Shown piece by piece: positions 4,814-29,775 of a stretch of DNA of 64,000 nt. The notes beneath the pieces are model-generated. The model was not told the origin of the DNA and did not search any database. It saw only the letters and a program-made list of their open reading frames with translations. The stretch covers positions 2,108,001 through 2,172,000 of the forward strand of contig NZ_CP009555.1 in NCBI RefSeq assembly GCF_000959365.1, written 5' to 3'. The translations under genes and the position numbers were made by a program. How positions within the stretch are numbered: position 1 is the stretch's first letter; the number at the start of each line of letters is the position of its first letter. The DNA comes from Burkholderia oklahomensis C6786 (GTDB taxonomy: Bacteria > Pseudomonadota > Gammaproteobacteria > Burkholderiales > Burkholderiaceae).

Positions 4814-4829
4814 GCAACGGGGTGGCGAA

Positions 4830-6320: not shown

Positions 6321-6334
6321 GCGAGTTGAGATCG

Positions 6335-6353
6335 CCCGGGCGGGCCGCCCGGG
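6335..6353 (+). promoter_or_regulatory. Hairpin between tssC and hcp
   Basis: CCCGGGC at 6335-6341, a 5-base loop and GCCCGGG at 6347-6353 make a perfect 7-bp GC stem. No T run follows, so this is more likely an RNA-stabilising or processing element in front of hcp than a terminator. Confidence 0.5.
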
Positions 6354-6391
6354 TAGGACGTTAAAACCACCTCTTTGGGGAGTCGTAGGCC

Positions 6392-6895: not shown

Positions 6896-6904
6896 GTTCG
6901 ACGC

Positions 6905-6940
6905 GGGAACGGGGCACGGCGCGTGCCCCGTTCCCGTTTT
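6905..6940 (+). terminator. Terminator/attenuator between hcp and tssE
   Basis: GGGAACGGGGCAC at 6905-6917 pairs perfectly with GTGCCCCGTTCCC at 6923-6935 around a 5-base loop, followed by GTTTT. This 13-bp stem lies 10 bases after the hcp stop and 13 bases before the tssE start. Since tssE-tssA continue the operon, it is probably a partial terminator. Confidence 0.8.
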
Positions 6941-6952
6941 GCGTGGAGCCCG

Positions 6953-7435
6953 ATGAAACGCTTCGAACCGAGCTTCCTCGACAAGCTGTTCGACGACGAA
7001 CCGCATGTGCCGGCGCCCGCTGCAATGCGGCAATTGTCGCTGGAAGAACTGAAGAACACGGTCGCGCGCGACGTCGAGGCGATCCTGAACACGCGCATCG
7101 CGCTGACCGACGAAGATCTTGCCGCGCTGCCGGAGTGCCAGCGCTCGGTGTTGACCTACGGGCTGAACGACTTCGCCGGCCTGAGCCTCGCGAGCCACTA
7201 CGACCGCACGTTCATCTGCAAGTCGATTCAGCAGGCGATCGCGCGGCACGAGCCGCGGCTGCAGCAGGTGTTGGTGACGTTCGAGCTGAACGAGCAGTCG
7301 ACGAACGCGCTCTACTTCGCGATCCAGGCGCTGCTCGTCGTGCATCCGGCCGAGGAGCCGGTGACCTTCGATGCGATGCTGCAGCCGTCGACGTTGCAAT
7401 ATTCGGTGACGCGCTCGCGCGCCACCAAGGTTTGA
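6953..7435 (+). CDS. tssE: T6SS baseplate protein TssE
   Basis: A 160-residue gp25-like protein (lysozyme-fold baseplate component, homologous to phage T4 gp25) which initiates sheath polymerisation. The ATG at 6953 gives the expected opening MKRFEPSFLDKLFDD; a longer frame upstream lies in the hcp terminator and was rejected. The ELKNTVARDVEAILNTR segment and the conserved S-x-L-x-Y-G-L-N-D-F block match the family, as does the later FELNEQSTNALYFAIQALL. Confidence 0.95.
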   Translation: MKRFEPSFLDKLFDDEPHVPAPAAMRQLSLEELKNTVARDVEAILNTRIALTDEDLAALPECQRSVLTYGLNDFAGLSLASHYDRTFICKSIQQAIARHEPRLQQVLVTFELNEQSTNALYFAIQALLVVHPAEEPVTFDAMLQPSTLQYSVTRSRATKV

Positions 7436-7513
7436 GCCGTATCGCGTGAGCCGCCGGGCGCCGCGCGGCAACGAGAAGCCCGGCACGAGAGCATCAGGTT
7501 TCGGGGATCGTCG

Positions 7514-9352: not shown

Positions 9353-10416
9353 TCGAGCGGCTGCTCGACGAGCCGCATCGCTTCGAGTTCTTTCAGGCGG
9401 TGCGGCTGCTCGAGACCTGGTTCGCGAAGCGTCATCCGCAACGCTACGCGGCGAGCCGGCCGGGCGAGATCGTCGCGCGGCGGATCGGCTTCAGAAACAC
9501 GTTGTCGCTCGGTTTTCCGCCGAGCGAGCTCGAGCGCGCGCAGTCGTACGACGAAGCGGGCGACGCGCTGAAGGACGAGCCGCAGCGCAACGCGGCGGTC
9601 GAAGCGGGCGCGCTGTCGCGCGTCGAGCTCACGCCGGCTTTCTTCGGCCTGCTGGGCGGCCAGGGCGCGTTGCCGCTCCATTACACCGAGCAGATCATCG
9701 CGCGCGAGCAGCTGAAGCGCGATCACGCGGCGCGCGCGTTTTTCGACGTGTTCTCGAATCGCGCGACCGCGTTGTTCTACGCGGCGTGGAAGAAGTACCG
9801 GCTGCCGCTGCATTACGAGCTCGACCGCGACGAGCGCTATCTGCCGCTGTTGCTCGCGCTCGCGGGCGTCGCGAACGACGATGCGCGCTCGACCGTGCAG
9901 GAAGGCCGCGGCGCGCTGCTCGACGAAGCGATCGCGGGCTATGCGCTCGCCGCGCGGCACCGGCCGGTGTCGGCCGCCTATCTGCAGCGCACGCTGTCCG
10001 AGTACTTCCGCGTGCCGATCCGCATCGAGCAGTTCGTCGGCAAGTGGTACGACGTGCCGCCCGATCAACTGAGCGTGCTCGGCGACGTGAACGTGACGCT
10101 CGGCGCGACGGCGCTCGTCGGCGAACGCGTGTGGCAGCGCGACATGCGCGCGCGGCTCGTCGTCGGGCCGCTGTCGAAGCGCGACTACGAGGCGTTCTTG
10201 CCAGGCGAGGAGCGCGCGGTCGCGCTCGAGCGGATGTTGACGCTGCTCGCCGGCGTCACGCTCGAATATGAAGTATCGCTCGTGCTGCGCCGTACCGAGG
10301 TCGGCGCGAGCATCCTCGGCAATGGCGCGCGACTCGGCTGGGACGCGTTCCTCTGCACGCGCGAAGCCGAGCGCGACCGCGCGGACGCGCGCTACGAACT
10401 GCATGTCATTCATTGA
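9316..10416 (+). CDS. tssG: T6SS baseplate protein TssG
   Basis: A 366-residue TssG/ImpH/VasB wedge protein. The chosen ATG at 9316 gives MQTAQRRIDPGVVERLLDEP, then the typical F-E-F-F-Q-A-V-R-L-L-E segment. Internal matches include ELTPAFFGLLGGQGALPLHYTE and FFDVFSNRATALFYAAWKKYR, both standard for the family, followed by LGDVNVTLGATALVGERVW near the end. The start lies inside tssF (37-bp overlap). Confidence 0.96.
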   Translation: MQTAQRRIDPGVVERLLDEPHRFEFFQAVRLLETWFAKRHPQRYAASRPGEIVARRIGFRNTLSLGFPPSELERAQSYDEAGDALKDEPQRNAAVEAGALSRVELTPAFFGLLGGQGALPLHYTEQIIAREQLKRDHAARAFFDVFSNRATALFYAAWKKYRLPLHYELDRDERYLPLLLALAGVANDDARSTVQEGRGALLDEAIAGYALAARHRPVSAAYLQRTLSEYFRVPIRIEQFVGKWYDVPPDQLSVLGDVNVTLGATALVGERVWQRDMRARLVVGPLSKRDYEAFLPGEERAVALERMLTLLAGVTLEYEVSLVLRRTEVGASILGNGARLGWDAFLCTREAERDRADARYELHVIH

Positions 10417-10449
10417 TAACAACGATCGAACCTGAGTGGACCGTAACCG

Positions 10450-13119: not shown

Positions 13120-13201
13120 GACCGCCGCGCGGCGCGTGCGTCACGCGTCGCGTGGTCATCGCAACGATGGACGCCGCAACGGACAGACATAGCATTCGAC
13201 C

Positions 13202-14317
13202 ATGCCGATCAACTTCAACGACTTGCTGACGCCGATCAGCGAAGCGTCGCCGTGCGGCGACGATCTCCTGTTCTCCGCCGAATTCGACGCGATCCAGCAC
13301 GCGCGCAAGTTCGACGATCCGTCGCTCGACCAGGGCGAGTGGATCACCGACATCAAGGAAGCGGACTGGAGCTTCGTCGTCGAGCAATCGACCGCGCTCT
13401 TGCGCGATCGGACCAAGGACCTGCGGCTCGCGGTATGGCTGACCGAGGCGCTCGCGCTCGAGGACGGCATCGGCGGGCTCACGCAGGGCTACGAGCTGCT
13501 GACGAATCTGTGCCGGCAATTCTGGGATCACGTGCACCCGCTGCCGGACGGCGACGACGCCGAGTACCGGCTCGGCAACGTCGCGTGGCTCGTCGGGCGA
13601 ACGGCCGAGCTGCTGCGCGCGGTGCCGCTCACCGACGGGGCGTCGAACGCGTTCAGCGAGCTCGACTGGGACGTCGCGCAGCACGTCGCGCAGGCGATCA
13701 AGCGCGATCCCGAGCAGGCGGACGAAATAGCGCGCGGCAAGCCGTCGGTCGAGCAGATCGAAGCGTCGAAGCGGATGACGTCCGTCGCGTTCTACGCGCG
13801 GCTGCTCGGCGAGCTGAGGGCGTTCCAGGTGGCGCTCGACGCGCTCGAGCAGGAGCTCGACCAGCGCGCGGGCGATGCGGCGCCGAGTTTCCGGCAGGCG
13901 CGCGACACGTACGAAACGGTCTATCGGCTCGCCGAGCGCTTCGCGAAGGAGCAGGGCTACTCGCCGGACGCGCAGCCGCAGGCCGCCGCGCCGAGCACGC
14001 CGATCGAGCGCGCGGAGCCGAGCTTCAAGACGCCGCTTTACCCGGACGAACACGCGCAGAGGCATACGCCGTCCGCTCCCGCGCCGATCGTGATCGCCGG
14101 CATCCAGAATCGCGCGCAGGCCGTCGAGCAGCTGCGCGCGGTCGCGAAGTATTTCCGCGGGACGGAGCCGCACAGCCCCGTCGCGTATCTCGCCGACAAG
14201 GCCGCCGAATGGGCGGACATGCCGCTGCATCAGTGGCTCGCGTCGGTCGTCAAGGACGACGGCTCGCTCGCGCACATCCGCGAGCTGCTCGGCCTGAAGC
14301 CGGATGACAACGCGTGA
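13202..14317 (+). CDS. tssA: T6SS baseplate/sheath cap protein TssA
   Basis: A 371-residue TssA/ImpA protein. The N-terminal ImpA domain is evident: L-x-P-I-S-E-A-S-P-C-G-D-D-L-L, then EADWSFVVEQSTALLRDRTKDLRLAVWLTEALALEDGIGGL, and an LCRQFWDHVHPLPD block. A linker leads to the C-terminal VEQLRAVAKYFRGTEPHSPVAYL region, which in many family members ends as here with a WADMPLHQWLASVV segment. It primes tail assembly from the baseplate or caps the growing tail. It is the last rightward gene and converges with the ompA/BON gene. Confidence 0.95.
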   Translation: MPINFNDLLTPISEASPCGDDLLFSAEFDAIQHARKFDDPSLDQGEWITDIKEADWSFVVEQSTALLRDRTKDLRLAVWLTEALALEDGIGGLTQGYELLTNLCRQFWDHVHPLPDGDDAEYRLGNVAWLVGRTAELLRAVPLTDGASNAFSELDWDVAQHVAQAIKRDPEQADEIARGKPSVEQIEASKRMTSVAFYARLLGELRAFQVALDALEQELDQRAGDAAPSFRQARDTYETVYRLAERFAKEQGYSPDAQPQAAAPSTPIERAEPSFKTPLYPDEHAQRHTPSAPAPIVIAGIQNRAQAVEQLRAVAKYFRGTEPHSPVAYLADKAAEWADMPLHQWLASVVKDDGSLAHIRELLGLKPDDNA

Positions 14318-14344
14318 GCGTCGGCCGGCTCGCGGCGGCCGGCC

Positions 14345-14385
14345 CAAAAAAAGCGACGGAGCGGCCGCCAAGGACCGTCCGTCGC
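14345..14385 (-). terminator. Terminator in the tssA / ompA-BON convergent gap
   Basis: GCGACGGA at 14353-14360 pairs with TCCGTCGC at 14378-14385; read on the minus strand the stem is followed by a run of seven T residues. It should end the tagX-tssM-tagF-ompA transcript and may also act on tssA transcripts. Confidence 0.65.
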
Positions 14386-14473
14386 CATTTCCATCTTGCT
14401 TGCCGTACCGGCGGATCGCTGTACCGCCGCGCAGGCGGGCCGCCCGCCCCGCCGCCGTTGGCGCTCGCGCCGC

Positions 14474-15400
14474 TTACTGCCCCGCGCGGAACTCGATCCG
14501 GCGATTGCGCGCGCGTCCGTCGTTCGTGTCGTTCGACGCGATCGGCTGATCGGGGCCGACGCCCGTCGTCGTCAACTGCTGCGACGCGATGCCCTTCGCC
14601 ACCAGATAGCCCTTCACCGCGTCGGCGCGCGCCTGGCTGAGCGCGATGTTCGACGCGCGATTGCCCGAGTTGTCGGTGTGGCCGATGATCTCGACCGTGC
14701 GGCTCGACATCTTCGCGAGCGCGCCCGCCATCTGGTCGAGGATCGCGCGGCCTTGCGGCGTGAGCGTCGCGCTGCCGGTTTCGAATTCGATCGTGCGGTT
14801 CGCGAGCGTCTGGTCGAGCAGGCCCTGCTCGGATGCGCTCACGCGCAGCCCGTTCTTGATCGTGTAGGTCGGGTTCAGCGCGTTCGCCATGTCGCTCGCG
14901 AGCTGCTGGCGCTGCGCCTCGTTGTGGACCTCGCCCTTCACGTCGATCTGCGTGCCGTCGATCTTGAGCTGTCCTTTGCTGATCTGCTTCAACTGCGGGC
15001 CGATCAGCTTCTGCACGTTCGCGGACCAGTTCGGCGGCGTCGCGACGTCGCCGACTTCGATCTGATCGACGACGTTCGCGGCGCCGTACGTGTCGCGCAG
15101 GCGCTGCAGCACGGCGGCCTTCGTCGCCTCGTCGGCGACCTTGCCGCCGGCGACGACCTGACCGGGCGTCGCGTTCGCGGGCGGTGGCGACGACACGGTC
15201 GCGCCGCCGCCCGCGCCGCTTGCCGCGGCGGGAGCGGGTGCGGCGAGCGGGGTCGATTTCACGGGCACGCCGCCTGCGTCGATCGGCGTGACGGTCGCGG
15301 GGCCGACGTTGTCGGCGAGCGCGACGCCGTGCAGCGTGCCGCCCAGCGCGAGCGCGGCGAGCGTGAGCCTGAAGCGGGAAGAGCGGAGCGGCTTCGTCAT
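14474..15400 (-). CDS. T6SS-associated OmpA-family protein with BON-like region
   Basis: A 308-residue exported protein starting at the ATG at 15400 (MTKPLRSSRFRLTLAALALGG; a signal peptide cleaved around ALA-DN). The middle part (about residues 70-190) resembles BON/OmpATb-type repeats (QLKIDGTQIDVKGEVHNEAQRQQLASD). The C-terminus is an OmpA-type peptidoglycan-binding domain with IIGHTDNSG and the N-x-x-LS-x-x-RA-x-x-V-x-x-YL motif, ending in RARNRRIEFRAGQ. Being last in the tagX-tssM-tagF block, it probably anchors the T6SS membrane complex to peptidoglycan, which TssL here cannot do itself. The start lies 4 bases after the tagF stop. Confidence 0.88.
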   Translation of the reverse strand: MTKPLRSSRFRLTLAALALGGTLHGVALADNVGPATVTPIDAGGVPVKSTPLAAPAPAAASGAGGGATVSSPPPANATPGQVVAGGKVADEATKAAVLQRLRDTYGAANVVDQIEVGDVATPPNWSANVQKLIGPQLKQISKGQLKIDGTQIDVKGEVHNEAQRQQLASDMANALNPTYTIKNGLRVSASEQGLLDQTLANRTIEFETGSATLTPQGRAILDQMAGALAKMSSRTVEIIGHTDNSGNRASNIALSQARADAVKGYLVAKGIASQQLTTTGVGPDQPIASNDTNDGRARNRRIEFRAGQ

Positions 15401-15404
15401 CGCA

Positions 15405-16394
15405 TCACGCTCCGATGAACGCTTCATGGAACGTGTCGATGCAGACACGCAGCGACAGTTGCGGTTGTTCGAGATAACTGACGAGCTTGCTGATCCCATG
15501 GTCGTTTTGCGCATGTGCGTCGATCCACTCCGGATCGTCGATGTCGATGTTGTGTTCGGCGTAAGTCTGCGGATCGACCACGCTGTGCAGGGTTTTCGCG
15601 GACGCGCCGTTGAAGCCGATGATGAGCCGCTCGCGCTCGGCGATCGTGCCGATGAAGATCGCCAGCTCGAAATCGGCGCGCGACACGAATGGTGCGACGA
15701 GCTCGAGCCAGAACGCGGCGACGAGGGTGCGATAGAACGGATCGGTCGGCAGCGGCAGCGTGAGCCCGCGCTCGATGTGCGACGTGCCGCTTTGCATCAC
15801 GGGACGCAGCAGCGAGCCGAGCGCGAGCATCGCGCCGCGCAGCTTCACCGGATGGCCGCTCGCGAGCAGCATCTGCTCGAGGCCGTACAGGGTCTGGTGC
15901 TCGACGAAATCGTTGAACGTGCCGTCGTGCGCGCTGCCCGGGCCGCCCGTGTCGATCGGCACTTGCGTGTCGCCGAGCGCCTGCAGCGCGCCGGCCGGCT
16001 CCTGCGGACCGAGGAGGGTTTGCATCTGCGCGGCGGCGCGCGACCAGAGCCGCGCGAACGCGAGCGGGCTGCGCGCGAGGAACGGCAGCGGCCGCTCGAC
16101 TTCGAGCGCCGTCGCGGCGAGGAACGGGAAGCGCCGGTTCGACGCGTCATGGCTCGCGATCATGTGGCCCGCGATCGCGAGCCGGCTCTTCGAGCCGAGG
16201 AACGCGAAGTGCATCGGCTTCGCGTTCTCGTAGACGATCTTCCAGCGCGGGTCGTCGGCGAGGAGCTCCATCGCGCGTGCGATCCAGTGGTCGAGCGTCT
16301 GCAGCAACTGCGGGTTGTGCGCGCTCTTCACGAAGTCGCCGCGCGACGGGATCTTGCCGAAGTAGGCGATCTGGGCCTGGACCGTTTGCGTCAT
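15405..16394 (-). CDS. tagF: T6SS post-translational repressor TagF
   Basis: A 329-residue TagF/ImpM family protein. The ATG at 16394 gives MTQTVQAQIAYFGKIPSRGDFVK, the classic family start (G-K-x-P-x-x-G-D-F), followed by LDHWIARAMELL. Its start overlaps the tssM stop (ATGA). TagF proteins hold the T6SS in an inactive state until signalled; in Pseudomonas this works with the PpkA/PppA/Fha phosphorylation pathway, but no kinase, phosphatase or Fha gene is in this window, so the release signal is unclear. Confidence 0.93.
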   Translation of the reverse strand: MTQTVQAQIAYFGKIPSRGDFVKSAHNPQLLQTLDHWIARAMELLADDPRWKIVYENAKPMHFAFLGSKSRLAIAGHMIASHDASNRRFPFLAATALEVERPLPFLARSPLAFARLWSRAAAQMQTLLGPQEPAGALQALGDTQVPIDTGGPGSAHDGTFNDFVEHQTLYGLEQMLLASGHPVKLRGAMLALGSLLRPVMQSGTSHIERGLTLPLPTDPFYRTLVAAFWLELVAPFVSRADFELAIFIGTIAERERLIIGFNGASAKTLHSVVDPQTYAEHNIDIDDPEWIDAHAQNDHGISKLVSYLEQPQLSLRVCIDTFHEAFIGA

Positions 16395-19300
16395 TGCGCC
16401 CTCTGTGCGTTCGATGCGGAAGCCGCCGCGACGGCGGCCTGCGGGGCCGCGGCGCTCGAGCCCGGCTGCGCAGTCGCGTTGGCCGCGCCGCCCGCGCTCG
16501 CGTCGGCGACCGACGACGGCAGGCGCAGCCCGCGCAGGCTCTGCTGCTGCGGCTGGTCGCCGCCGCCCGTCGGCTGCGACGTGCTGATGATGCGCATCGT
16601 CACCGATACGCTGACGTTGCCTTGCGTCCACGTCAGGTCGAACGTGCCGTCCGGACGGCGCTTGCGCTGCGCCGAGTTGATCAGCTTCTCGAGACCGTAG
16701 CGGCCCGGCTCGTTGACGAGCTGGAGCGTGCGGCCGTCGAACGTCGTCGCGGACAGCGTCGCGCCGGGCGAGCCCTGCGGGTTCGGCCACACGAAGTTCG
16801 TCCACTGCGGCGGCGTGTTGCGGTAGCGCAGCTGCTGGCCGTCGATCGCGATCGTGTATTCGGTCGTGCCGCTGCTCGGCTGCGGCAGGACCTGAAACAC
16901 GGTCTGCGGTTCGGACGACGCGGCGGCGCTCGCCGCCGCGCCGCCCGCAAGCGGCGCGACCCAGCGTGCGAAGCCGTTCGTGAAGTCAGGCGTGAGCGCG
17001 AGGCCCATGTCGCCCCAGGTGCGCGCGGACAGCGTGTCGCCGCGGCGCACCGCGAGCGGCCCGAGCGTCGTGCCGACGAACTTCGCGATCGAGCCGTCCG
17101 GACCGAACACCTGCGCGATTTCGCTCGCGCCCGCTTCGACCTTCGCGCCCGCCGCGAACGGATACTTGTTCGCGAGCGAGCCCTGGAACGTCTGGTAGAC
17201 CTGCGCGTTCCACACCTTGTTCACTTCGACGCTCGCCGGCTGGATCACGACCGCGAACGCCTGCATCAGCGGACGCACGAGGAGCGGACGCAGCGACTTG
17301 CGCTGCGAATCGGTCAGGCCCGTCAGCATCTGCTCGTCGACGAACTTCAGCGAATCGGCGAGCTCGGAGCCGTTGCCGTCGAGCGTCTGCTGCATGAGCT
17401 GGCGCGCGCCGGGGCCGGGGTCGCCCTGGTTCTTGATCACGTTGAAGCGCGTGCGGACCTTCGACAGCGTGTCCATGTAGCCCTTCAGCATCGACGTGCC
17501 GTCATGCGTCGCGACGATCCGGCCGAGCCCGATGAACTCCTGGCCGATCGGACCCATCGGCGCCTCGGCGGGATTGCCGTTGATGTCGATGTTCGCCGCG
17601 ACCTGGCCGCCCGGCTGACGCGTGAACCATTGCCTGACCCAGTTCACGACGCCCGTCTGCGCCTTCTTGATCGTCGCGTTCGCGAGCGACGGGTTGTCCC
17701 ACGACGTCTGGTCGTACGCGGTCTCGAGCACCTTGCGGATCGGCGAATCCTGCGGGTCGCCGAGCTTGTTCATCGCGTCGACCGCCTGGCCGAAGTTGCC
17801 GAAGCCCTGCACCGCGATGCCCTGCATGAACTTCTGCCAGTGCTGCGCGTACTCGGTCTTGTACATCGCGACGAGCGTCTTCTGGATCTGCTCGGGGCTG
17901 CCCTCGAGCGTCAGGTCGTCGGCCGTCGCGGTGTTCAGCACCCAGTCCTTCGCCTGCAGCTCCTTCGTCGCGGCGTCGCGGATCGCGGGCTGCACGTACT
18001 GGAACCACGCTTCGCGCGTGAACGTGCCGGGGATCGCGTAGCTGCCCGCGACGAGGCCCGTGTTGCCTTCGCCGACGATCCGCGCGATCGTCATCGGCGC
18101 GAAGCGGGTCGACGCGCGCGCCTTGATTTCTTCGTACACGCGCTGGCGCGCCGGCATCCCGCGCACGACGCGGCGCAGGTTCTCGCGGGTCTGGTCGACG
18201 AGCGCGAGGTTCGCTTCGATCATCGGCCAGTCGTTGTCGGAGACGCGCGACAGATAGAACGTGATCATTCGCTCCGCGCTCTTGATCATCTCGTCGCGCG
18301 GCATGTTGCCGCGATTCGTCTCGAGCCAGCCGCGCCAGAAGCGCGCGATCTGGTCGGTCAGATGCGCCTGCTCGACGTGCCGCTTGTCGGACAGCATCAG
18401 GTAGGTCTTGAGCGCGTTGTACGCGTCCTCGACGTTGGTCGGCGACGCGTCGTTGTAGAGGCCGCCCTGCTGCGGATTCTGCGCGGCGGCAGGGGAGGGG
18501 GCCGCGCCCGGCGCCGCCGGGTTCGTCGACACCGGCACGGCGCCCGCTTGGACCGCGCCCGATTCCGGCGCGCGCGTCATCGGCGCGAGCTGGTCCGGAT
18601 GCGTGTTCACGTCCTTCAGGAACGACGCGAGGTTGCCCGAGACCGGGTTCAGCAGGATTTGCCGCACGCCGTTGTAGTACTCGGTCAGCAGATGCTGCTC
18701 GAGACGGTCGCCTTGATAGAGGCCGAGCGATACGGACAGCGGCTTGTCGCGGCGGAACTGCTCGAGCTGCTCGATCCGGTCTTCGAGGATGTCCATCGCC
18801 TGCAGACGGGACTGCAGGTCGTTGCGGTTCTGCTGCAGGCGGGTCACGTTGTCGAGGTCGGCCTGCACGTTCGACACGAGCTGCTGGTTGCCGATCGTCG
18901 ACCAGGTCCAGCCGCCGAGCGCGAGCGCGAGCGCCGCGACGAAGCCGAAGAACGTCGCGTAGCGCATGCGCGTCTTCGTCGGGCTCGCGAACTGGCGGAC
19001 CGTCTGGCGGTCCGCGAAGATCACCTTCGAGAACAGGTCGCGCAGGAAGAATCCGTTCTTCGAGAACGCGCTGTGCGGCTTCGGCAGGCTTTGCGCGTCG
19101 AGGCCGAAGCGATTCGCGATCCGCTGCGCGGCGGCGCTGTTCGTCTCGCCTTCCTGCAGCGCGCTCGTGAAGTAGAAGCCGCGGAAGATCGGCTTGTACT
19201 GGAACGGATTGTTTTCGAACAGCGTCGCGAGGAACGAGCGCAGCGCGGGCTTGATCGTCGAGAACTCGAGCGGAAAGCTCAGTTGGCCGGGCGAAAGCTT

Positions 19301-20284
19301 GTTGCCGCGGCTGATCGACAGTTGCGCGACGCTGATCTCCTTCAGCCCTTCGTACAGCTCTTCGAAACGCTCGTCGAACAGCGCGACGACGTCGCGCTTC
19401 TCGTCCGGCTCGTACGGCAGCGTCGCGCCCCATACGCGGTCGTATTCCTGGCGGTCGCTGCTGCTGAAGAATTCGGTGAAGCCCGTGATCAGATCGGCCT
19501 TCGTGAACATCACGTAGACGGGCGCGAATACTTCGAGCTTCTCGGTGAGCTCCTGCACGCGCTGGCGCAGGTTCTTCGCGAGGTTGATCGCGAATTCGGG
19601 ACGGTTGCCGGTCAGCTCGGCGATGCTCGCCGTGACGATGATCCCGTTGATCGGCGCCTTCGGGCGATGGCGCTTCAGCAGATCGAGGAAGCCGAGCCAT
19701 TCGCTGCGATCTTCCTCGTGCACCGAATAGCGGCCCGCGGTGTCGAGCAGGATGCCTTCCGTCGTGAAGAACCAGTCGCAGTTCCGGGTGCCGCCGATGC
19801 CGTGGATCACCGCGCTGTTCTTGTCCGCGAACGGAAACTGCAACCCCGAGTTGATGACGGCGCTGCTCTTGCCTGCGGCCGGGTTGCCGATCACGATGTA
19901 CCACGGCAGCTCGTAGAGCGCGGAGCCGCCCGACACCTGACCGATCTTCGACGTCTTGATCGTCTTCACCGTGTCGGCGAGACGGGTGCGCAGCACGTCG
20001 AGGTCCGCCTGCTTCGCGGGCTCGGCCGCGGCAGCGGACATCTTGCCCGTTTCGGCCTGCTGTTCGAGGATGTCGCCGAGCCGGCGGTTCGCGCGGCGCA
20101 CGCGCCAGCGGCGCCAGAGCTTCGTCGCGAGCCAGAGCGCGACGGCGACGGCGAACGCGACGGCCGCCCATACGAAGCCGATCTGTAGCGCATCGGCCGC
20201 GAGGAACAGAACCGCCGCGAGCGCGGCGAAGCCGACGATCGTGAGCGTGCGAGGGTGAGTCAACACGTTGAGGAAGCGTTGCAT
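16391..20284 (-). CDS. tssM: T6SS membrane-complex protein TssM (IcmF)
   Basis: A 1297-residue IcmF-family inner-membrane protein. Two N-terminal transmembrane helices (about residues 13-30 and 33-53) lead into a cytoplasmic GTPase-like domain with an intact Walker A (GNPAAGKSS, about 133-141) and DTAGRYSV. A third membrane helix near residues 440-465 (FFGFVAALALALGGWTW) begins the long periplasmic part that crosses the envelope and binds TssJ. The C-terminus is an Ala/Ser-rich extension. It lies 316 bp downstream of tagX and overlaps tagF by 4 bp. Confidence 0.97.
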   Translation of the reverse strand: MQRFLNVLTHPRTLTIVGFAALAAVLFLAADALQIGFVWAAVAFAVAVALWLATKLWRRWRVRRANRRLGDILEQQAETGKMSAAAAEPAKQADLDVLRTRLADTVKTIKTSKIGQVSGGSALYELPWYIVIGNPAAGKSSAVINSGLQFPFADKNSAVIHGIGGTRNCDWFFTTEGILLDTAGRYSVHEEDRSEWLGFLDLLKRHRPKAPINGIIVTASIAELTGNRPEFAINLAKNLRQRVQELTEKLEVFAPVYVMFTKADLITGFTEFFSSSDRQEYDRVWGATLPYEPDEKRDVVALFDERFEELYEGLKEISVAQLSISRGNKLSPGQLSFPLEFSTIKPALRSFLATLFENNPFQYKPIFRGFYFTSALQEGETNSAAAQRIANRFGLDAQSLPKPHSAFSKNGFFLRDLFSKVIFADRQTVRQFASPTKTRMRYATFFGFVAALALALGGWTWSTIGNQQLVSNVQADLDNVTRLQQNRNDLQSRLQAMDILEDRIEQLEQFRRDKPLSVSLGLYQGDRLEQHLLTEYYNGVRQILLNPVSGNLASFLKDVNTHPDQLAPMTRAPESGAVQAGAVPVSTNPAAPGAAPSPAAAQNPQQGGLYNDASPTNVEDAYNALKTYLMLSDKRHVEQAHLTDQIARFWRGWLETNRGNMPRDEMIKSAERMITFYLSRVSDNDWPMIEANLALVDQTRENLRRVVRGMPARQRVYEEIKARASTRFAPMTIARIVGEGNTGLVAGSYAIPGTFTREAWFQYVQPAIRDAATKELQAKDWVLNTATADDLTLEGSPEQIQKTLVAMYKTEYAQHWQKFMQGIAVQGFGNFGQAVDAMNKLGDPQDSPIRKVLETAYDQTSWDNPSLANATIKKAQTGVVNWVRQWFTRQPGGQVAANIDINGNPAEAPMGPIGQEFIGLGRIVATHDGTSMLKGYMDTLSKVRTRFNVIKNQGDPGPGARQLMQQTLDGNGSELADSLKFVDEQMLTGLTDSQRKSLRPLLVRPLMQAFAVVIQPASVEVNKVWNAQVYQTFQGSLANKYPFAAGAKVEAGASEIAQVFGPDGSIAKFVGTTLGPLAVRRGDTLSARTWGDMGLALTPDFTNGFARWVAPLAGGAAASAAASSEPQTVFQVLPQPSSGTTEYTIAIDGQQLRYRNTPPQWTNFVWPNPQGSPGATLSATTFDGRTLQLVNEPGRYGLEKLINSAQRKRRPDGTFDLTWTQGNVSVSVTMRIISTSQPTGGGDQPQQQSLRGLRLPSSVADASAGGAANATAQPGSSAAAPQAAVAAASASNAQRAQ

Positions 20285-22681: not shown

Positions 22682-24121
22682 TCAACGCACCGACCACAAC
22701 CCGATGCCGCCGAGGCTCGCCGCGAGCTTGAGCCGCGCGGTGCGCCATTTCGATACCGCCTGCACGCGCTGCTTCTGCGCGTCGGCGAGCGCCGTCTGCG
22801 CATTCAGCAGCTCGGTGAACGTGCCGACGCCCGCCTTGTAGCGGCCGCGCGCGATGTCGAGCGAGCGCTGCGCGTCGCCGAGCAGGTCTTTCGAGTTGTC
22901 GAGATTCGCGGTGTCGGTCTGCAGGCTCTGAAAGCTCTTCCACACGTCGAGCGACACGTTCAGCTCGGCGTTCTGCACGTCCGCTTCCTGCGCGTCCGCC
23001 TGCGCCTGCGCGGCCGCGACGCGGTAGCCTGACGCGAAGCCTTCGAAGAGCGGGATCGTCACCTGGACGCCGATCGTGCTGCCGTGGCTCGCAGTGGTCT
23101 GGATGCCGAACTGTTGCTGATACGAAGGACTGTTGCGGCTGAGGCTGCCCGTCAGCGAAATGGTCGGACGTCCTTGCGCGCGCGCCGCGTCGACGTTCGC
23201 GCGCGCGGCGTCGAGCTTCGCGCGCGCGGCGACGAGTTTCGGATGCTGCCGTTTCGCTTCGTCGATCAATTGCGCGACGCCTTCCGCGAATGCGTTGCGA
23301 TCGACGGCCGGCTCGGCGGGAGCGATTTGCAGCGGCGTGTTCGCGTCGAGTCCCATCGCGACTGCGAGCGCACCGGTTGCATTCTGCACGTCGCCTTCGG
23401 CGCTCACGCGATCGAGCACCGCGCGGCGGTAGCTCGTCTGCGCCTGCAATTGGTCGCTCAGCGTGCCCGCGCCGGCGTCGTGCTTCGCTTTCGCCTCGGT
23501 GAGGCTTTCCTGCGCGGCGCGTTCGATCGTGCGCGCCGCGTCGACGGCCGCCTGCGCGTCGCGCAGGTTGTAATACGCTTGCGCGGCGTTGAAGAGGATC
23601 GTCTGCAGCGTGTCATCCTGCGTCGCGTTGGCGGCGGCAAGAAGTTCGCGCGCCTGCCTGAGCGCCGCGCTGCGCTTGCCGAAATCGAACAGCACCCAGC
23701 TCAGGTTGAGCGCGCCGTAGCGGCTCGTTTGTGTTTGCGTTTGCGTATCGCTCGCCGAGACGGTCCCGAGATTGGCCTCGTAGGTCGTGGATGCCCAGTT
23801 CCGCTGAATGCCGCCCGTCGCGTTCAGCGTCGGCAAATACGCGGCCTCGTTCACGCCGACCTGCGCCGCTTGCGCGCGCGCATTCGCCCATGCCTGCCGC
23901 GCCTGCGGGTTCGCGCAGATCGCCTGCAGGATCGCGTCTTCGAGTGCGATCGGATGGCTTGCCAGCTCGGGCTGGCACGTCGCGTTCTTCAACAGCGGTG
24001 CGGCGGGTGTCGCGGACACGTTCTTTCGGGTTCCGTAGATATCGAGCCATTGCGCATGCGCGGCGTGCGACGCGAAGAGCGCGAGCGCGCCGGCGGCGAC
24101 GAGCGTGCGTGCGGACTTCAT
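22682..24121 (-). CDS. TolC-family outer-membrane channel of the peptide exporter
   Basis: A 479-residue outer-membrane efflux protein. The ATG at 24121 gives a clear signal peptide (MKSARTLVAAGALALFASHAAHA). The body has two repeats of the OEP domain: IALEDAILQAICANPQARQAWANARAQAAQVGVNEAAYLPTL opens the first and FAEGVAQLIDEAKRQHPKLVAARAKLDAA opens the second, with the coiled-coil helices expected of the periplasmic tunnel. Two hydrophobic beta segments per repeat would form the trimeric barrel. It starts 5 bases after the stop of the ABC exporter and is last in the leftward export operon. Confidence 0.92.
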   Translation of the reverse strand: MKSARTLVAAGALALFASHAAHAQWLDIYGTRKNVSATPAAPLLKNATCQPELASHPIALEDAILQAICANPQARQAWANARAQAAQVGVNEAAYLPTLNATGGIQRNWASTTYEANLGTVSASDTQTQTQTSRYGALNLSWVLFDFGKRSAALRQARELLAAANATQDDTLQTILFNAAQAYYNLRDAQAAVDAARTIERAAQESLTEAKAKHDAGAGTLSDQLQAQTSYRRAVLDRVSAEGDVQNATGALAVAMGLDANTPLQIAPAEPAVDRNAFAEGVAQLIDEAKRQHPKLVAARAKLDAARANVDAARAQGRPTISLTGSLSRNSPSYQQQFGIQTTASHGSTIGVQVTIPLFEGFASGYRVAAAQAQADAQEADVQNAELNVSLDVWKSFQSLQTDTANLDNSKDLLGDAQRSLDIARGRYKAGVGTFTELLNAQTALADAQKQRVQAVSKWRTARLKLAASLGGIGLWSVR

Positions 24122-24126
24122 CGCGT

Positions 24127-26373
24127 TCACCGTCCAGCGACGGGTTGCGCGGCCGCCGGCGCGGCGGGCGCGGGAGCGGCGGCCGGAGCGGGCGTCGCAG
24201 CCGGAGCGGACGCTGCGCCAGGAGCCACGGCCGGCTTCGGCGCCACGGCGAGCTCGGCGGTCGGCTTGTCGAGGGCGACCTTGCCCGCGTCCAGCATGAT
24301 CACGCGCGACGCGGACGCGATCGTCTCCGGACGGTGCGCGACGATCACGCGCGTCATCTTCAGCGCACCGACCGCGGCGTTCACCTGCCGTTCGCGTTGC
24401 AGATCGAGGTGGCTCGTCGCCTCGTCGAGCACGAGGATCTTCGGCCGCTTGTAGAGCGCCCGCGCGAGCAGCACGCGTTGCTTCTGTCCGCCCGACAGCA
24501 CCGTGCCCATGTCGCCGACGAGCGTGTTGTAGCCCATCGGCATCGCGACGATGTCCGCATGCACGGCCGCGAGATGCGCGCATTCGGCGACCCACTTCGG
24601 ATCGGCGTCCGGATCGAAGAAGCTGATGTTGTCGGCGATCGAGCCGGCGAACAGCACGTCGTCCTGAAGCACGGTGCCGACGAGCGAACGCAGCCGGTCG
24701 AGGCCGAGGCGCTCGACGTCGACGCCGCCGATCTTGATCGCGCCGCTCGTCGGTTCGAGGATGCCGAGCAGCACGTTGACGAGCGTCGTCTTGCCGCAGC
24801 CCGACGGTCCGATCAGCGCGACCGACTCGCCCGGCTCGATTTTCAGCGACACGCCGTCGAGCACGGTCGGCTCGCCTTCGGCATAGCGGAACACGAGATC
24901 GCTGGCCTCGATGCCCGCGGAGAGGTTCTCCGCCTCGCCCGGCACGTGCCGCGCGCCGGCGTCGGATTCGCCCTGCGCGAACACGATGTCGGCGAGCCGC
25001 TCGCCCTGCAATTGCAGCATCTTCACCTCGAAGAACTTGTCGATCAGACTGCCGACGCGGCTGTCGAACTGCCCCTTGTACGCGTTGAACGCCATCAGCA
25101 CGCCGACGGTGAATTCGCCGTCCATCACGAGACGCGCGCCGAGCCAGATGATGACGAGCCCTTCGAGGCCGAACAGCAGGCCGTTCAATTGCTGATACAG
25201 GAGCTGCAGCTTCTGCACGTGCAGGCCGGCATTGATCTGCTCGACGAGCAGCGTGAGCCAGCTCGAGCGGCGTTCGCTCTGGCGGTTGAACAGCTTGATG
25301 GTTTTCACGCCGCGCACCGTTTCGAGAAAATGGCTCTGTTGCTTCGCGGTGTGGATGATCTGGTCTTCCGCCGCGCGCCGCAGCGGCCGATACCAGAGCC
25401 AGCGCAGCAGTGCGTAGAGGACCATCGTGCCGAGCGCGACGAACGCGAGCGTGCGGCTGTAGACGAACATCATCGCGAGCGTGACGATCGTCATCAGCCC
25501 GTCGATCACTGCGGACAGGAACGAGGTCGTCAGCGTCTGCTGGATCGTGTCGATCGAACCGAAGCGCGACACGACGTCACCGAGGTGGCGCCGCTCGAAG
25601 TACTGGACGGGCAGGTTCAGCAGGTGCGTGAACACGTTCGCGCGCCATTGCACGTTGAGCGTCGTGCCGAGATACATCAGCGCCCACGCGCGGATCGCGC
25701 TCGTCGCCTGCTGCATCAGCAGCAACAGGCCGAAGCCGAGTGCGAGCACGGTCAGCAGATCGCGATCCGCGCTGACGATCACCTCGTCGATCACCCATTG
25801 CAGGAAGAACGGAGATACGAGCGTGAACACTTCGAGCGCGATCGCGAGCACGAGGATCTGGCCGAGCGAGCGCGACAGCCCGGACACGGGGCCGAGCAGT
25901 TGACGCAGCTTCACGGCGGGCGACGCCACGCGCGGCTTGAAGCCGCCTGTCGGCCACAGCTCGAGCGCGACGCCCGTAAACGAGCGGGATAATTCGTCGA
26001 GCGACAGCTTGCGCACGCCTTGCGCGGGATCGTGAATCGTCGCGCTCCTGCCGTTGACTTCCTTCAGCACGACGAAGTGGTTGAAGTTCCAGTGCAGCAC
26101 GCACGGCGCGCGTAGCTGGCCGAGCTGATCGAGATCGAGCTTCAGCGCGCGCGTGCCGAGATCGAGGCGCTGCGCGATCTCGATCACGCGGCCGAGGCCC
26201 GCGCCTTTCAGCGATACCGGGAAGCGGCTGCGCATCGTCGCGAGGTCGACGTGATGGCCGTGAAAACCCGCAACCATCGCGAGGCAGGCAAGACCACATT
26301 CGGCTGCTTCGGTCTGCAGGATCATCGGCAGCTTGCTGCCGATGCCGAACGAGAGACGATCGAGGAGTGACAT
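24127..26373 (-). CDS. Peptidase-containing ABC exporter (C39 leader peptidase, PCAT type)
   Basis: A 748-residue ABC transporter with three parts: an N-terminal C39 cysteine protease (residues 1-140), six transmembrane helices (about 165-440) and an ATPase domain (about 480-705). The protease triad is intact: Gln20/Cys26 in QTEAAECGLACLAM, His99 in WNFNHFVVL and Asp115 in IHDPAQG. This separates it from RTX exporters whose domain lacks the cysteine. The ATPase has GPSGCGKTT, LSGGQKQRV and ILVLDEATSHLD. Such transporters cut double-glycine leaders and export the core peptide. An Ala/Pro-rich tail follows. The two peptides at 28294-28867 are obvious substrates. Confidence 0.95.
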   Translation of the reverse strand: MSLLDRLSFGIGSKLPMILQTEAAECGLACLAMVAGFHGHHVDLATMRSRFPVSLKGAGLGRVIEIAQRLDLGTRALKLDLDQLGQLRAPCVLHWNFNHFVVLKEVNGRSATIHDPAQGVRKLSLDELSRSFTGVALELWPTGGFKPRVASPAVKLRQLLGPVSGLSRSLGQILVLAIALEVFTLVSPFFLQWVIDEVIVSADRDLLTVLALGFGLLLLMQQATSAIRAWALMYLGTTLNVQWRANVFTHLLNLPVQYFERRHLGDVVSRFGSIDTIQQTLTTSFLSAVIDGLMTIVTLAMMFVYSRTLAFVALGTMVLYALLRWLWYRPLRRAAEDQIIHTAKQQSHFLETVRGVKTIKLFNRQSERRSSWLTLLVEQINAGLHVQKLQLLYQQLNGLLFGLEGLVIIWLGARLVMDGEFTVGVLMAFNAYKGQFDSRVGSLIDKFFEVKMLQLQGERLADIVFAQGESDAGARHVPGEAENLSAGIEASDLVFRYAEGEPTVLDGVSLKIEPGESVALIGPSGCGKTTLVNVLLGILEPTSGAIKIGGVDVERLGLDRLRSLVGTVLQDDVLFAGSIADNISFFDPDADPKWVAECAHLAAVHADIVAMPMGYNTLVGDMGTVLSGGQKQRVLLARALYKRPKILVLDEATSHLDLQRERQVNAAVGALKMTRVIVAHRPETIASASRVIMLDAGKVALDKPTAELAVAPKPAVAPGAASAPAATPAPAAAPAPAAPAAAQPVAGR

Positions 26374-26388
26374 AGGCTTGTGATCGCG

Positions 26389-27657
26389 TCAGAGTTTGCC
26401 CGTCAGGCTGTAAAGAGGTTCGAGCACCCACTCGTACAGACGGCGGCGCTCCTGCAGGATGTCGGCCTGCAACGCCATGCCCGCCTGGAGCGGCTGCGCC
26501 TTGCCGTAGGCCGTCACGCTTTGCGACTTCAGTGCGACCGTGATCCGGTAGTACGTGCCGCTCGCCGTTTGCGCGGCGGGGCCGCCGCTCGTCGCGAGCT
26601 CGGCCGCCGACAACGCGGTGCGCGCGATCGACACGACGCTCGCTTCGTACTGGCCGAACTTCTGATATGGATACGCCTGATAGCGGACGAGCACGCGATC
26701 GCCGACGTGGATGAAGCCGACCGCGGCGCTCGGCACGAACAGATACGCCTGCCAGTGCGCGTCCGTCGGCACGATGCTCGCGAGCGGATGCGACGTGTCG
26801 GCCGTCTGGCCGGGCTCGGCGATCACCGCGGTCGCGGTGCCGGTTTCCGGCGCGGTGATGACGAGCTCGCGCTTCGCCTCGCTTTCGATCAGCGTGCGAT
26901 CGACGTCGATCACGCTGCGGTCGATTTGCGACAACTGGTTCTGCTGCTTGAGCGACAACCCCGACAGATCGTTGAGCGCTTCCTTCAGCGCTTGCGCGGC
27001 GCCTGCGCGATCGCGCATCAGGCTGTTCAGCTTCGAGCGCTGATCGAGCAGGTCGGCCTGGCGCTGCTGCGCCTGATCCTTCGAGATGTAGTCCTGCGCG
27101 AGAAGGCCGGCGTAGCGCGACGCCGCATCGGCCGCGATCGACGTGCGCGTGCGTTGCGCGGCGATCTGGTCGTCGATGCCCGCGAGCTCCGCGCGCAGGC
27201 TCGCGATCTTCGATTGCAGCGTGTCGCGCTCGTCCTGTTGCAGCGTCCTGGTCTTGTCGAGCTCCTGCTGCAGCGACGTCTTGCGTTGCTGCGCCTGTTC
27301 GATGAGCGCCGCCTGCGTCTGTCCCGCGGCCGCGCTTTGCAGATCGGTGGACACCGTATAGAGCACCTGTCCACGCGCGACGTGCTGTCCTTCGACGACG
27401 TTCTTCTTCAGCACGACGCCCGTCTGCTGCGCATAGACCTTGACGAGGCCCGTATCCGGCGTGAGCACGCCGTCGACCGTCGTGCGTCGCGTATAAGTGC
27501 CGAACGTGAACAGCAGGATCACGCCGAGCGCCATGCTCGCGGCTGCGCCGGCCAGCACGGCGAACGACACCGGACGGATCAGCACGATCTCGCCCAGCGT
27601 CTGCGTGCGCTGCGCTTCCTGCGCGGCCGTTCGAAAGAGTGGAGTATTGGGCGTCAT
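26389..27657 (-). CDS. HlyD-family membrane fusion protein of the peptide exporter
   Basis: A 422-residue periplasmic adaptor. One membrane helix near residues 28-50 (PVSFAVLAGAAASMALGVILLF) is followed by the RRTTVDGVLTPDTGLVKVYAQQTGVV lipoyl half-motif, long coiled-coil helices (about 100-230) and the second lipoyl half with ELVITAPETGTATAVIAEPGQTAD. It bridges the ABC exporter and the TolC-like channel, making one export tunnel. It precedes the exporter gene by 15 bp and lies 636 bp downstream of the peptide genes. Confidence 0.93.
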   Translation of the reverse strand: MTPNTPLFRTAAQEAQRTQTLGEIVLIRPVSFAVLAGAAASMALGVILLFTFGTYTRRTTVDGVLTPDTGLVKVYAQQTGVVLKKNVVEGQHVARGQVLYTVSTDLQSAAAGQTQAALIEQAQQRKTSLQQELDKTRTLQQDERDTLQSKIASLRAELAGIDDQIAAQRTRTSIAADAASRYAGLLAQDYISKDQAQQRQADLLDQRSKLNSLMRDRAGAAQALKEALNDLSGLSLKQQNQLSQIDRSVIDVDRTLIESEAKRELVITAPETGTATAVIAEPGQTADTSHPLASIVPTDAHWQAYLFVPSAAVGFIHVGDRVLVRYQAYPYQKFGQYEASVVSIARTALSAAELATSGGPAAQTASGTYYRITVALKSQSVTAYGKAQPLQAGMALQADILQERRRLYEWVLEPLYSLTGKL

Positions 27658-28293
27658 GGATGGACTGCCGAAAGTAGCGTGTATGTCGTCGCGGAGCCGC
27701 GTCGCGATGGCGTCAGGCCGTTCGAGCGTCGCCGCGTGCGAACGTGCGCATCGCGTCGACCGGGCGATCGCTGCGCGCGGCGGCTTCGATTCGTGCTCGA
27801 GTCGGTTCGTGCATGTCTAGCTCGTCATGGATGTCGTGACGATGTCCCGGCGAACGAAGCCGCAATGCAATGCGGCGCTCGGCGTTTCATCGACGAATCG
27901 TTCGCAGCGGCCGCTCGCTGAAGATTGCGGCGGTCCTGGCCTCGGATGCGGACGATTCGATTCTCGTTGGCGTCGCATCAGAAGGTATCGGAGCCGAGCA
28001 AAACAGGAAAGCGCGTTGGTCTACGTTTTGACGATCTTTGATATCTTTCCACCCAATGTGCCGGATGATTCGAGTGGATGAACAATCGGCTTGGAGGCGT
28101 CGAGTGCGGTTGCCGCCCATGTCGGATCGCGCGTGCGTTGCGCATGGCGTTTCGCGCCGGACGGGAAGTGGAATCGTTCGTTTCGCGTGCCCGGCGACGG
28201 GACCGGGCACGCATTCGGCATAACTAACCAAGCTGCCGGCGCCGGAGGATCGTTCGACGCCGGTGCTTCGAGAGTCGTCGCGTCGAAACGCGA
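27658..28293. other. Non-coding gap between peptide genes and exporter operon
   Basis: A 636-bp stretch with no convincing gene. The short frames in it are polar, rich in Arg/Ser/Thr and lack ribosome sites and any hydrophobic segment. It must hold the exporter promoter unless the peptides and exporter share a transcript. No clear immunity gene is present. Confidence 0.5.
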
Positions 28294-28524
28294 TTATTTG
28301 CCCGTCAGCACACCCTGGATGATGCCGATCGTGCTGGTGAGCGCGCCGGCGACGCCGTCGACCGTGTGCGTGAGGATCGCGCCCGCGGAGTCGGTCAGGT
28401 TCGCGCCGAAGTTGTAGGCCGACTGGCCCAGCAGCAGCACTTCGTTGCCGATTGCGCCGACCAGGTTGGTCAGGAGCGAAGCGCCGCCGACCATGGCGAT
28501 TTCTTGTTGATTGAGTTCTTGCAT
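28294..28524 (-). CDS. Double-glycine leader peptide 1 (bacteriocin/microcin precursor)
   Basis: A 76-residue precursor starting at the ATG at 28524 with a ribosome site (GGAG, 8 bases upstream). The leader MQELNQQEIAMVGG (14 residues) fits the double-glycine consensus with hydrophobic positions at -4, -7 and -12 and Gly-Gly at -2/-1. The 62-residue core is very rich in Gly, Ala, Leu, Thr and Val, has no cysteine, and has glycines spaced as in membrane-inserting helices (GAIGNEVLLLGQSAYNFG). It shares the leader and a Y-[ND]-x-G-A-N-L-T block with peptide 2. Cleavage and export by the C39 transporter downstream is inferred. No modification enzyme gene is near. Confidence 0.9.
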   Translation of the reverse strand: MQELNQQEIAMVGGASLLTNLVGAIGNEVLLLGQSAYNFGANLTDSAGAILTHTVDGVAGALTSTIGIIQGVLTGK

Positions 28525-28630
28525 AGTGAATCTCCGAATGATGTGCAGGTGGCTGAAAAATCCATCGAGCGGTCGAGACAAGGAGAGAGGAGTCCGTCGG
28601 CGCTCAATCGATCATCGGTGTGCCGGTGTA

Positions 28631-28867
28631 TTACGCCTTCGGGCCCGTGATGATGCTCGCGATGTTGCCGAGCGTGCCGCCGACGAGCGTTTCGCCGATT
28701 TGAACCACACCCGTCGCGAAGCCGACGAGGTCGCCCGTCAGGTTCGCGCCGAGATCGTACAGTGCGCCGCCGTAAGCGCCGATCAGGCCCGTGAGGCCGC
28801 CGATCAGGCCGCCGCCAACCGTTGCGCCGCCGACGAGGTCGATCTCTTGTTGGTTGAGTTCTTGCAT
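28631..28867 (-). CDS. Double-glycine leader peptide 2 (bacteriocin/microcin precursor)
   Basis: A 78-residue precursor starting at the ATG at 28867 with a good ribosome site (GGAGAAAG). The leader MQELNQQEIDLVGG differs from that of peptide 1 at only two positions. The 64-residue core is extremely Gly-rich with GxxxG repeats (ATVGGGLIGGLTGLIGAYGG) and carries the shared Y-D-L-G-A-N-L-T block. The two genes lie in the same direction 106 bp apart, probably by duplication. Two unequal, cysteine-free, GxxxG-bearing peptides from one operon recall two-component (class IIb) bacteriocins, in which the partners pack as helices in the target membrane. Confidence 0.9.
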   Translation of the reverse strand: MQELNQQEIDLVGGATVGGGLIGGLTGLIGAYGGALYDLGANLTGDLVGFATGVVQIGETLVGGTLGNIASIITGPKA

Positions 28868-28886
28868 TGACTTTCTCCAATTAACT

Positions 28887-28905
28887 GCCAGATGGCCCAT
28901 CTGGC
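28887..28905. promoter_or_regulatory. Perfect 19-bp inverted repeat upstream of peptide 2
   Basis: GCCAGATGG-C-CCATCTGGC is a perfect palindrome centred 29 bases upstream of the peptide 2 start codon, just before the ribosome site. It could be an operator for a dimeric regulator or a hairpin in the leader RNA. No regulator gene is adjacent. Confidence 0.6.
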
Positions 28906-29775
28906 GGGGTAGATCTGCGACGCCGTTGACGAAGCGCAGCAAATCAATCCGGTCTACGGCGATCGTTCGTCGCGGGGAGCGGATCGATGCGCCGTGCGCC
29001 GATCCGTTCGCGACGCCCGATGGTCGAGTCGTCCTTGTGTCCGGCGCACCGTCGACCCAGGTCGCGATGCGCCGGACACCTGATCCATGCTGTCTTCCCT
29101 TGCCTTCGTCATCAATCGGCCCCCGAACTTGGTCTTGGATGAATGGCAACGTTCGTTCGTCGTCGAGCATTGCGGCTCGATCGTCGACGAACGGCGCCGA
29201 GCCGGAGGCAACGCACATCGACTGGTTGCGACGCGCTTGTCTTGCGGCGCGTCGCGCGATCGAACAAATGCGATTGCGCAGGTTCAGCGAATTCGTTACG
29301 ACATGACGGCATGTTTTCGATGCTCGCGTTGTCGTGCGGCAATTATCAAATGTCGGATTGAACTGTTAAGTTCGGTAGCGTACTCATCATCACGGTGCGG
29401 TCCGTCGATTTAATCGACGTTTAAAGGGCGTAGAAAAACACCGTGATTTAGTTCTGGCGATCGAACGATTTTCGATTAGGAATGAGTGAGATCCGTATCG
29501 ATGTGATATACGCGCGATGCGCGTGGCCGCGTCGCGGCGAACGTCGTCGCATGTCCGCGCTGTGGCGCATGCTGAGACGATTCGTTCTGTCGAAGCCGCA
29601 GCGGCGGCATCGAGCCGATACGCTCGGTCGATGTCGAAATTCTCAAAATTTCGACAAATCCGTTCGCACATCTACCGTTTGCGTGCAGCCGTATGGCGAC
29701 GCATTTAAATGAACTGCGTGTTGGTTTTGTTTGGATATGCTGTTCGAGCGTCGATAACGACGACGTGGCGTGGTT

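What the first reader, a model, noticed from the sequence alone, without database searches (positions are those of the whole stretch)
22682..28867. Two-peptide double-glycine bacteriocin candidate with its own C39 exporter, HlyD and TolC
The sequence shows two paralogous precursors (76 and 78 residues) with nearly identical 14-residue GG leaders, cysteine-free Gly-rich hydrophobic cores with GxxxG spacing and a shared Y-x-x-G-A-N-L-T block. On the same strand downstream are an HlyD adaptor, an ABC exporter with an intact C39 protease triad and a TolC-like channel. Established knowledge: C39 exporters cut GG leaders and secrete class II bacteriocins and microcins. Inference: this is a dedicated secretion system for a two-component antimicrobial in Burkholderia, next to the antibacterial T6SS.
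Basis: partly seen in the sequence, partly recalled or inferred. Interest (0 to 1): 0.9.

Follow-up and report, generated by a model that had tools for sequence, protein, structure and literature searches.

The report
Exported peptide pair with RNA leader
A Burkholderia gene set makes two small bacteriocin-like peptides and the machine to export them, carries no obvious protection gene beside them, and starts with a folded RNA element that marks peptide genes of this family.

Summary
Two small genes (78 and 76 aa) share 12 of 14 leader residues ending in GG. On the same strand follow HlyD, a C39-peptidase ABC exporter (Cys26/His99/Asp115 aligned to solved C39 proteases) and a TolC-type channel. 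Both peptides are under purifying selection and form two families, A and B, that occur as a pair. The GxxxG argument is weak: no more than composition gives (P=0.11 and 0.42).

Export as GG peptides is very likely. A two-peptide antibacterial is plausible (closest: Caulobacter CdzC/CdzD), but no immunity gene was found in this cassette or in the orthologous cassettes read, unlike class II microcins and Cdz.

New here: the 5' leader of gene A holds a conserved two-hairpin RNA (28887-28945, minus strand) just before the ribosome-binding site. All 24 leaders folded singly show both hairpins, the first one covaries, and Rfam has no match. All 22 exact copies of the second hairpin in 65 Burkholderia genomes lie directly before a GG-leader peptide gene, orphan genes included, and all 17 genomes with the element also have a close exporter. 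Its regulatory role and the peptides' function are inferred, not shown.

The parts
28631..28867 (-). Peptide A precursor, 78 aa, GG leader of 14 residues
   Evidence: ORF; family alignment A4 of 12 sequences; dN/dS 0.03-0.37
28294..28524 (-). Peptide B precursor, 76 aa, leader 12 of 14 identical to A
   Evidence: ORF; family alignment A5 of 12 sequences; dN/dS 0.09-0.29
26389..27657 (-). HlyD-type periplasmic adaptor, 422 aa
   Evidence: Pfam HlyD_3 E 2.5e-15
24127..26373 (-). ABC exporter with N-terminal C39 peptidase, 748 aa
   Evidence: Pfam Peptidase_C39 E 4.7e-34, ABC_membrane, ABC_tran; alignment to 6mpz and PCAT1 chains
22682..24121 (-). TolC-type outer membrane channel, 479 aa from the ATG
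   Evidence: Pfam OEP E 3.8e-64; TIGR01844 E 3.1e-62, below its cutoff
28912..28945 (-). Hairpin P1 of the RNA leader
   Evidence: covariation; single-sequence folds; model hit E 4.9e-18 (the window is one of the sequences the model was built from)
28887..28905 (-). Hairpin P2 of the RNA leader, 8 pairs with a three-base loop
   Evidence: genus-wide pattern search
28873..28878 (-). Ribosome-binding site GGAGAA of peptide A
   Evidence: sequence, conserved in alignment
29342..29369 (-). Weak sigma-70-like site TTAACA-16-GATAAT, possible promoter
   Evidence: 1 found, 0.7 expected by chance; both hexamers kept in three species
28185..28212 (-). GC-rich hairpin after peptide B, no T run
   Evidence: sequence; stem kept in relatives including TSV86; not called by the terminator scan

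Best explanation
A type I export cassette makes, cuts and secretes a pair of peptides. The C39 domain of the exporter recognises the MQEL..QEI..V.GG leader, cuts after GG and passes hydrophobic, glycine-rich cores of about 64 and 62 residues through HlyD and TolC (parts shown; cutting and export inferred from established C39 biology). Production of A, and of B if co-transcribed, is tuned by a two-hairpin RNA leader beside the ribosome-binding site (structure shown by conservation; action inferred). Outside, the two cores most likely act together on membranes of competing bacteria, in the manner of Caulobacter CdzC/CdzD (inferred). Since no immunity gene is linked, the producer must be protected by an unlinked gene or by general resistance (inferred).
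For: Gene set and C39 residues. Constraint on both peptides. A and B are separate families found side by side in the five held genomes where both were read: G001, G034, G069, G030, G033. Leaders conserved while cores vary. Orphan cargo genes share leader and RNA element. All 17 of 65 genomes with the RNA element have an exporter at least 75% identical to this one; 0 of the 41 genomes without such an exporter have the element. RNA structure.
Against: No linked immunity gene. GxxxG not above composition. No match to a bacteriocin family above cutoff. G033 carries several cargo genes and no immunity gene was seen beside those read, which is costly if every one is a toxin. Two counts of P1 covariation, pairs changed on both sides and further pair types, were not exceptional against shuffles. 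Seven of the 24 exporter genomes lack the element.
Confidence: 0.5

Rival explanations
1. The peptides are exported but not toxic: surface or matrix peptides, or signals, whose cores vary between species and need no immunity.
For: No immunity gene beside the peptides in the cassettes and orphan loci read. Several cargo genes in one genome, for example G033. GG peptides with a non-killing role exist: RaxX with RaxABC (abstracts in the search listing only).
Against: Two paired glycine-rich hydrophobic cores resemble CdzC/CdzD as described in PMC5380434. No modifying enzyme such as a sulfotransferase was seen among the cassette genes. Unlinked immunity is not excluded.
Confidence: 0.38
2. The palindromic P2 is a DNA operator for a regulator rather than an RNA structure.
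For: P2 is a near-perfect palindrome with strongly conserved letters.
Against: P1 beside it keeps pairing while its letters change. Two P2 pairs vary as GC/GU, which is asymmetric in DNA. All 24 leaders folded singly have z below -2. The site is always 17-30 nt before the ATG in the 22 pattern hits. One cargo gene without the element (L154) has a differently lettered hairpin pair at the same place.
Confidence: 0.12

Closest known systems
Cdz system of Caulobacter crescentus and Cdz-like systems (PMC5380434: abstract, sections 13, 16, 18, 32 and passages read)
   Same: Two small glycine-rich peptides with a GG-type leader and a type I exporter; Cdz-like candidates are named for B. cepacia.
   Different: Cdz has the linked immunity gene cdzI and no TolC gene in the cluster; here a TolC-type gene is present and no immunity gene was found. 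The RNA leader is seen only here; I did not test Cdz for one.
Class II microcins (MccV type; PMC13174018, passages read)
   Same: GG leader, C39 exporter (PCAT) and membrane fusion protein.
   Different: Immunity proteins are typically encoded with the microcin and TolC elsewhere; here the reverse. Two peptides instead of one.
RaxX-RaxABC of Xanthomonas (search listing only)
   Same: Small precursor peptide with its own ABC exporter and a non-killing role.
   Different: RaxX is tyrosine-sulfated by a clustered enzyme; no such gene was seen beside this cassette.
Two-peptide (class IIb) bacteriocins of Gram-positive bacteria (recalled, and as described in PMC5380434)
   Same: Adjacent paired GG-leader peptides.
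   Different: Gram-negative exporter, no linked immunity, cores slightly acidic (net -2 each).

Membership tests
C39 type I secretion system | C39 domain with Cys/His/Asp, ABC domains, HlyD adaptor and TolC-type channel | tested here: met
Class II microcin | GG leader and linked C39 exporter | tested here: met
Class II microcin | linked immunity gene | tested here: not met
   no ORF of 35 aa or more kept in all five gaps compared; none with a predicted TM segment in the window gap
Class II microcin | antibacterial activity | not testable with these tools
   needs experiment
Cdz-like system | 60-151 residues with leader ending in G[G/A/S] near a type I secretion system | tested here: met
   78 and 76 aa, leaders end in GG; criteria from section 13 of PMC5380434
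Cdz-like system | glycine zipper GxxxGxxxG not interrupted by proline or charge | tested here: inconclusive
   A: residues 19-27 uninterrupted and 45-53 with an Asp; B: only at its C-terminus, 67-75; GxxxG not above composition
Cdz-like system | small transmembrane immunity protein (CdzI) in the cluster | tested here: not met
   the paper says immunity genes were hard to identify in Cdz-like loci
Cdz-like system | sequence relation to CdzC/CdzD | not tested
   CdzC/CdzD sequences were not in hand; the authors report no BLAST relatives
Cdz-like system | surface retention and contact-dependent killing | not testable with these tools
   needs experiment
NHLP bacteriocin exporter (TIGR03796) | score above the curated cutoff | tested here: not met
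   496.8 bits against 853.3
Described cis-regulatory RNA (Rfam 15) | match to a curated family | tested here: not met
   no match in the leader at E up to 5; no match in six other loci at E up to 1

The most novel reading that the evidence does not exclude
The leader is a new, genus-specific cis-acting RNA that gates translation of the cargo genes of one C39 exporter, the linked pair and orphan cargo alike, and so defines a regulon of exported GG peptides that work without linked immunity: something other than a classical bacteriocin.
Probability: 0.45. Interest if true: 0.7.

Novelty: new variant of a known kind. Interest (0 to 1): 0.55.

Why it matters
If right, exported peptides of Burkholderia carry a built-in RNA control element that is also a precise genomic tag: it marks cargo genes that have no exporter beside them. 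That gives a way to list an exporter's cargo, and it turns the missing immunity genes into a testable question of whether such GG peptides kill at all.

Tried and rejected
Immunity gene in the 636-bp gap or the 1-kb upstream region: rejected. A 52-53-aa ORF in the gap is kept in the window, G001 and G034 but is frame-shifted in G069 and absent from TSV86, with no TM segment. GxxxG as specific evidence: rejected. T6SS adjacency as functional evidence: TssM-M15-ORF-cassette-M1 is kept in L021 and L022; TssM was not matched in the other 13 loci compared, several of them short contigs. AlphaFold: A low confidence (mean pLDDT 60); B one long helix, but the five models range from 85 to 53; not used as evidence, and no fold search was run. 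Shorter RNA alignment A8: P1 misaligned, dropped. PADLOC: no match for the peptides, only weak or ATPase-type matches for HlyD and the exporter. Element outside the genus: 1 of 300 genomes sampled from the order matched, the nearest relative itself, with strict filters. Literature searches listed no paper seen to describe this cassette in the B. pseudomallei group or this RNA; most listed papers were not opened, and subscription papers and preprints are largely not held. The Cdz paper names B. cepacia.

Full report
WHAT IS THERE. On the minus strand, in order, lie peptide A (28631-28867), peptide B (28294-28524), an HlyD adaptor (26389-27657), a C39-ABC exporter (24127-26373) and a TolC-type channel (22682-24121). 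Pfam gives HlyD_3 2.5e-15; Peptidase_C39 4.7e-34 with ABC_membrane and ABC_tran; OEP 3.8e-64. The peptides match no family at a useful level: Bacteriocin_IIc E 0.26 for A, E492 microcin E 0.18 for B. The C39 domain aligns with the solved double-glycine protease 6mpz (E 3.7e-27) and with PCAT1-type chains. Cys26, His99 and Asp115 are read off that alignment; that these positions are catalytic is established knowledge of C39 proteases.

WHICH ORGANISM. The window's assembly is not held; the nearest held genome shares 37% of sampled 31-letter words. Peptide A is 94% identical to a protein named Burkholderia pseudomallei (P0001) and B is 96% identical to another (P0009; name). I take it as B. pseudomallei group, species unresolved, and treat it as possibly a listed agent.

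MORE THAN CHANCE. Between the window, G001, G034 and G069, dN/dS was 0.03-0.37 for A and 0.09-0.29 for B over all six pairs. A and B are two separate families, aligned with 12 sequences each, and lie side by side in the five held genomes where both were read: G001, G034, G069, G030, G033. Leaders are 12 of 14 identical; cores differ. GxxxG is not evidence: 7 against 4.6 in shuffles for A (P 0.11), 2 against 1.4 for B (P 0.42). Extended GxxxGxxxG occurs at residues 19 and 45 of A and at residue 67 of B.

NO LINKED IMMUNITY. The 1-kb region before A and the 636-bp gap between B and HlyD show frame-breaking insertions and deletions between the window, G001 and G034. No ORF of 35 aa or more is kept in all five gaps compared (window, G001, G034, G069, TSV86); one of 52-53 aa is kept in three, frame-shifted in G069 and absent from TSV86, without a TM segment. 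In single-peptide orthologues the space between peptide and HlyD is 161-277 bp in five loci (L026, L027, L030, L032, L033). In L028 and L031 the script found no HlyD start, but the HlyD match begins about 150 bp after the peptide. In strain TSV86 (L025) peptide A, peptide B, HlyD, ABC and TolC lie between two inverted copies of one protein, the first of which matches the IS240-type transposase domain. A gene elsewhere in the genome is not excluded.

THE RNA LEADER. Reading upstream of the peptides showed a shared element. In 24 aligned leaders (A3) hairpin P2 has 8 pairs, 99.0% of cells paired, one pair with compensatory change (CG 16, UA 8) and two pairs varying GC/GU. Hairpin P1 has 13 pairs and 80.1% of cells paired: 27 cells changed on both sides against 13.4 in shuffles (0 of 500 as high), covariation score 0.321 against 0.231 shuffled and 0.09-0.17 slid. 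Not exceptional were pairs with a change on both sides (8 against 6.3; 71 of 500) and further pair types (163 of 500). Related sequences inflate such scores. P1 was drawn by eye from the window and L141; without those rows 220 of 278 cells pair (79.1%), against 26-48% slid. Folded one by one without the alignment, all 24 have z below -2 (mean -3.3). All 24 printed structures show an upstream hairpin and P2; the script's own flag says 17 of 24 because its rule for P1 fails when P2 is one pair longer. Rfam has no match.

SPECIFICITY. The exact P2 pattern, without ribosome-binding site or start codon, has 22 matches in 65 Burkholderia genomes and none for the reversed control. All 22 lie 17-30 nt before the ATG of a GG-leader peptide gene. 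The pattern was written from these sequences, so the informative part is that no match lies elsewhere. The covariance model gave 26 hits in 17 of 65 genomes, with strict filters; 23 of the 26 are sequences the model was built from. Of the 26, 24 precede a GG peptide; one (L190) appears interrupted just after the ATG; one weak hit (L191, E 0.0017) precedes an unrelated secreted-looking protein. Conversely, of 29 family peptides found by protein profile in the genus, 22 carry the element; the seven without it are five B-type second genes, G034:C2 and G074. G034:C2 (L154) has a differently lettered hairpin pair at that place. All 17 genomes with the element have an exporter at least 75% identical to this one; 24 of 65 genomes have such an exporter, so seven have the exporter without the element, and none of the 41 others has the element (Fisher P 1.9e-10, not corrected for shared ancestry).

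HOW IT MOST LIKELY WORKS. Shown: genes, C39 residues, constraint, pairing of A and B, conserved RNA structure. Inferred: cutting after GG, export, control by the leader, joint action of the cores on membranes. A sigma-70-like site at 29342-29369 is no more than chance by count (1 found, 0.7 expected) but is kept in three species; if used, the transcript leader is about 470 nt. A GC-rich hairpin at 28185-28212, without a T run, is kept in relatives and may separate peptide from exporter expression.

COMPARISON. Closest is Cdz (PMC5380434: abstract, sections 13, 16, 18, 32 and passages): two small glycine-rich proteins, type I export, contact-dependent killing, Cdz-like candidates in B. cepacia; but with CdzI and without a clustered TolC gene. 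Class II microcins are often clustered with immunity genes and not with TolC (PMC13174018, passages). The passages shown of a review of Burkholderia secretion systems do not describe GG peptides (PMC13391677, 12 of 18 places), and those of a compilation of Burkholderia antimicrobials name other bacteriocins (PMC9958762, 12 of 33 places).

VERDICT. A sound observation with a plausible, unproven antimicrobial reading. The unexpected parts are the dedicated RNA leader and the missing immunity.

Noticed in passing
window about 4295-20284: Type VI secretion genes: VipA, VipB, Hcp, TssF, Clp-type ATPase, ImpA_N, OmpA-family, TagF and IcmF matched (9 of 10 proteins scanned).
   Followed up: partly
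L028 12368-16999; ketoreductase-like start also in L031: In some Burkholderia orthologues acyltransferase, ketoreductase and ketosynthase genes follow TolC (Pfam on L028; L031 by eye); not so in the window.
   Followed up: no
L025 116-862(-) and 7547-8293(+): The cassette of strain TSV86 lies between two inverted copies of one IS240-type transposase gene, as in a composite mobile element.
   Followed up: partly
L073, L075, L076, L078, L107, L112: Related exporters in other proteobacteria have GG peptides with leucine- and glycine-rich repeats (LGGLLG...), quite unlike the Burkholderia cores.
   Followed up: no
L165 2321-2446(+) and L166 841-966(-): A 41-aa ORF with one predicted TM segment lies divergent from an orphan peptide in two genomes; a possible unrecognised partner.
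   Followed up: no
window 27986-28035: A 50-base block in the gap before HlyD, 84% identical in TSV86 although the rest of the gap is not; possible exporter promoter.
   Followed up: no
L191 about 1580-1605: A weak match to the RNA model (E 0.0017) before a gene for a secreted-looking repetitive protein.
   Followed up: no
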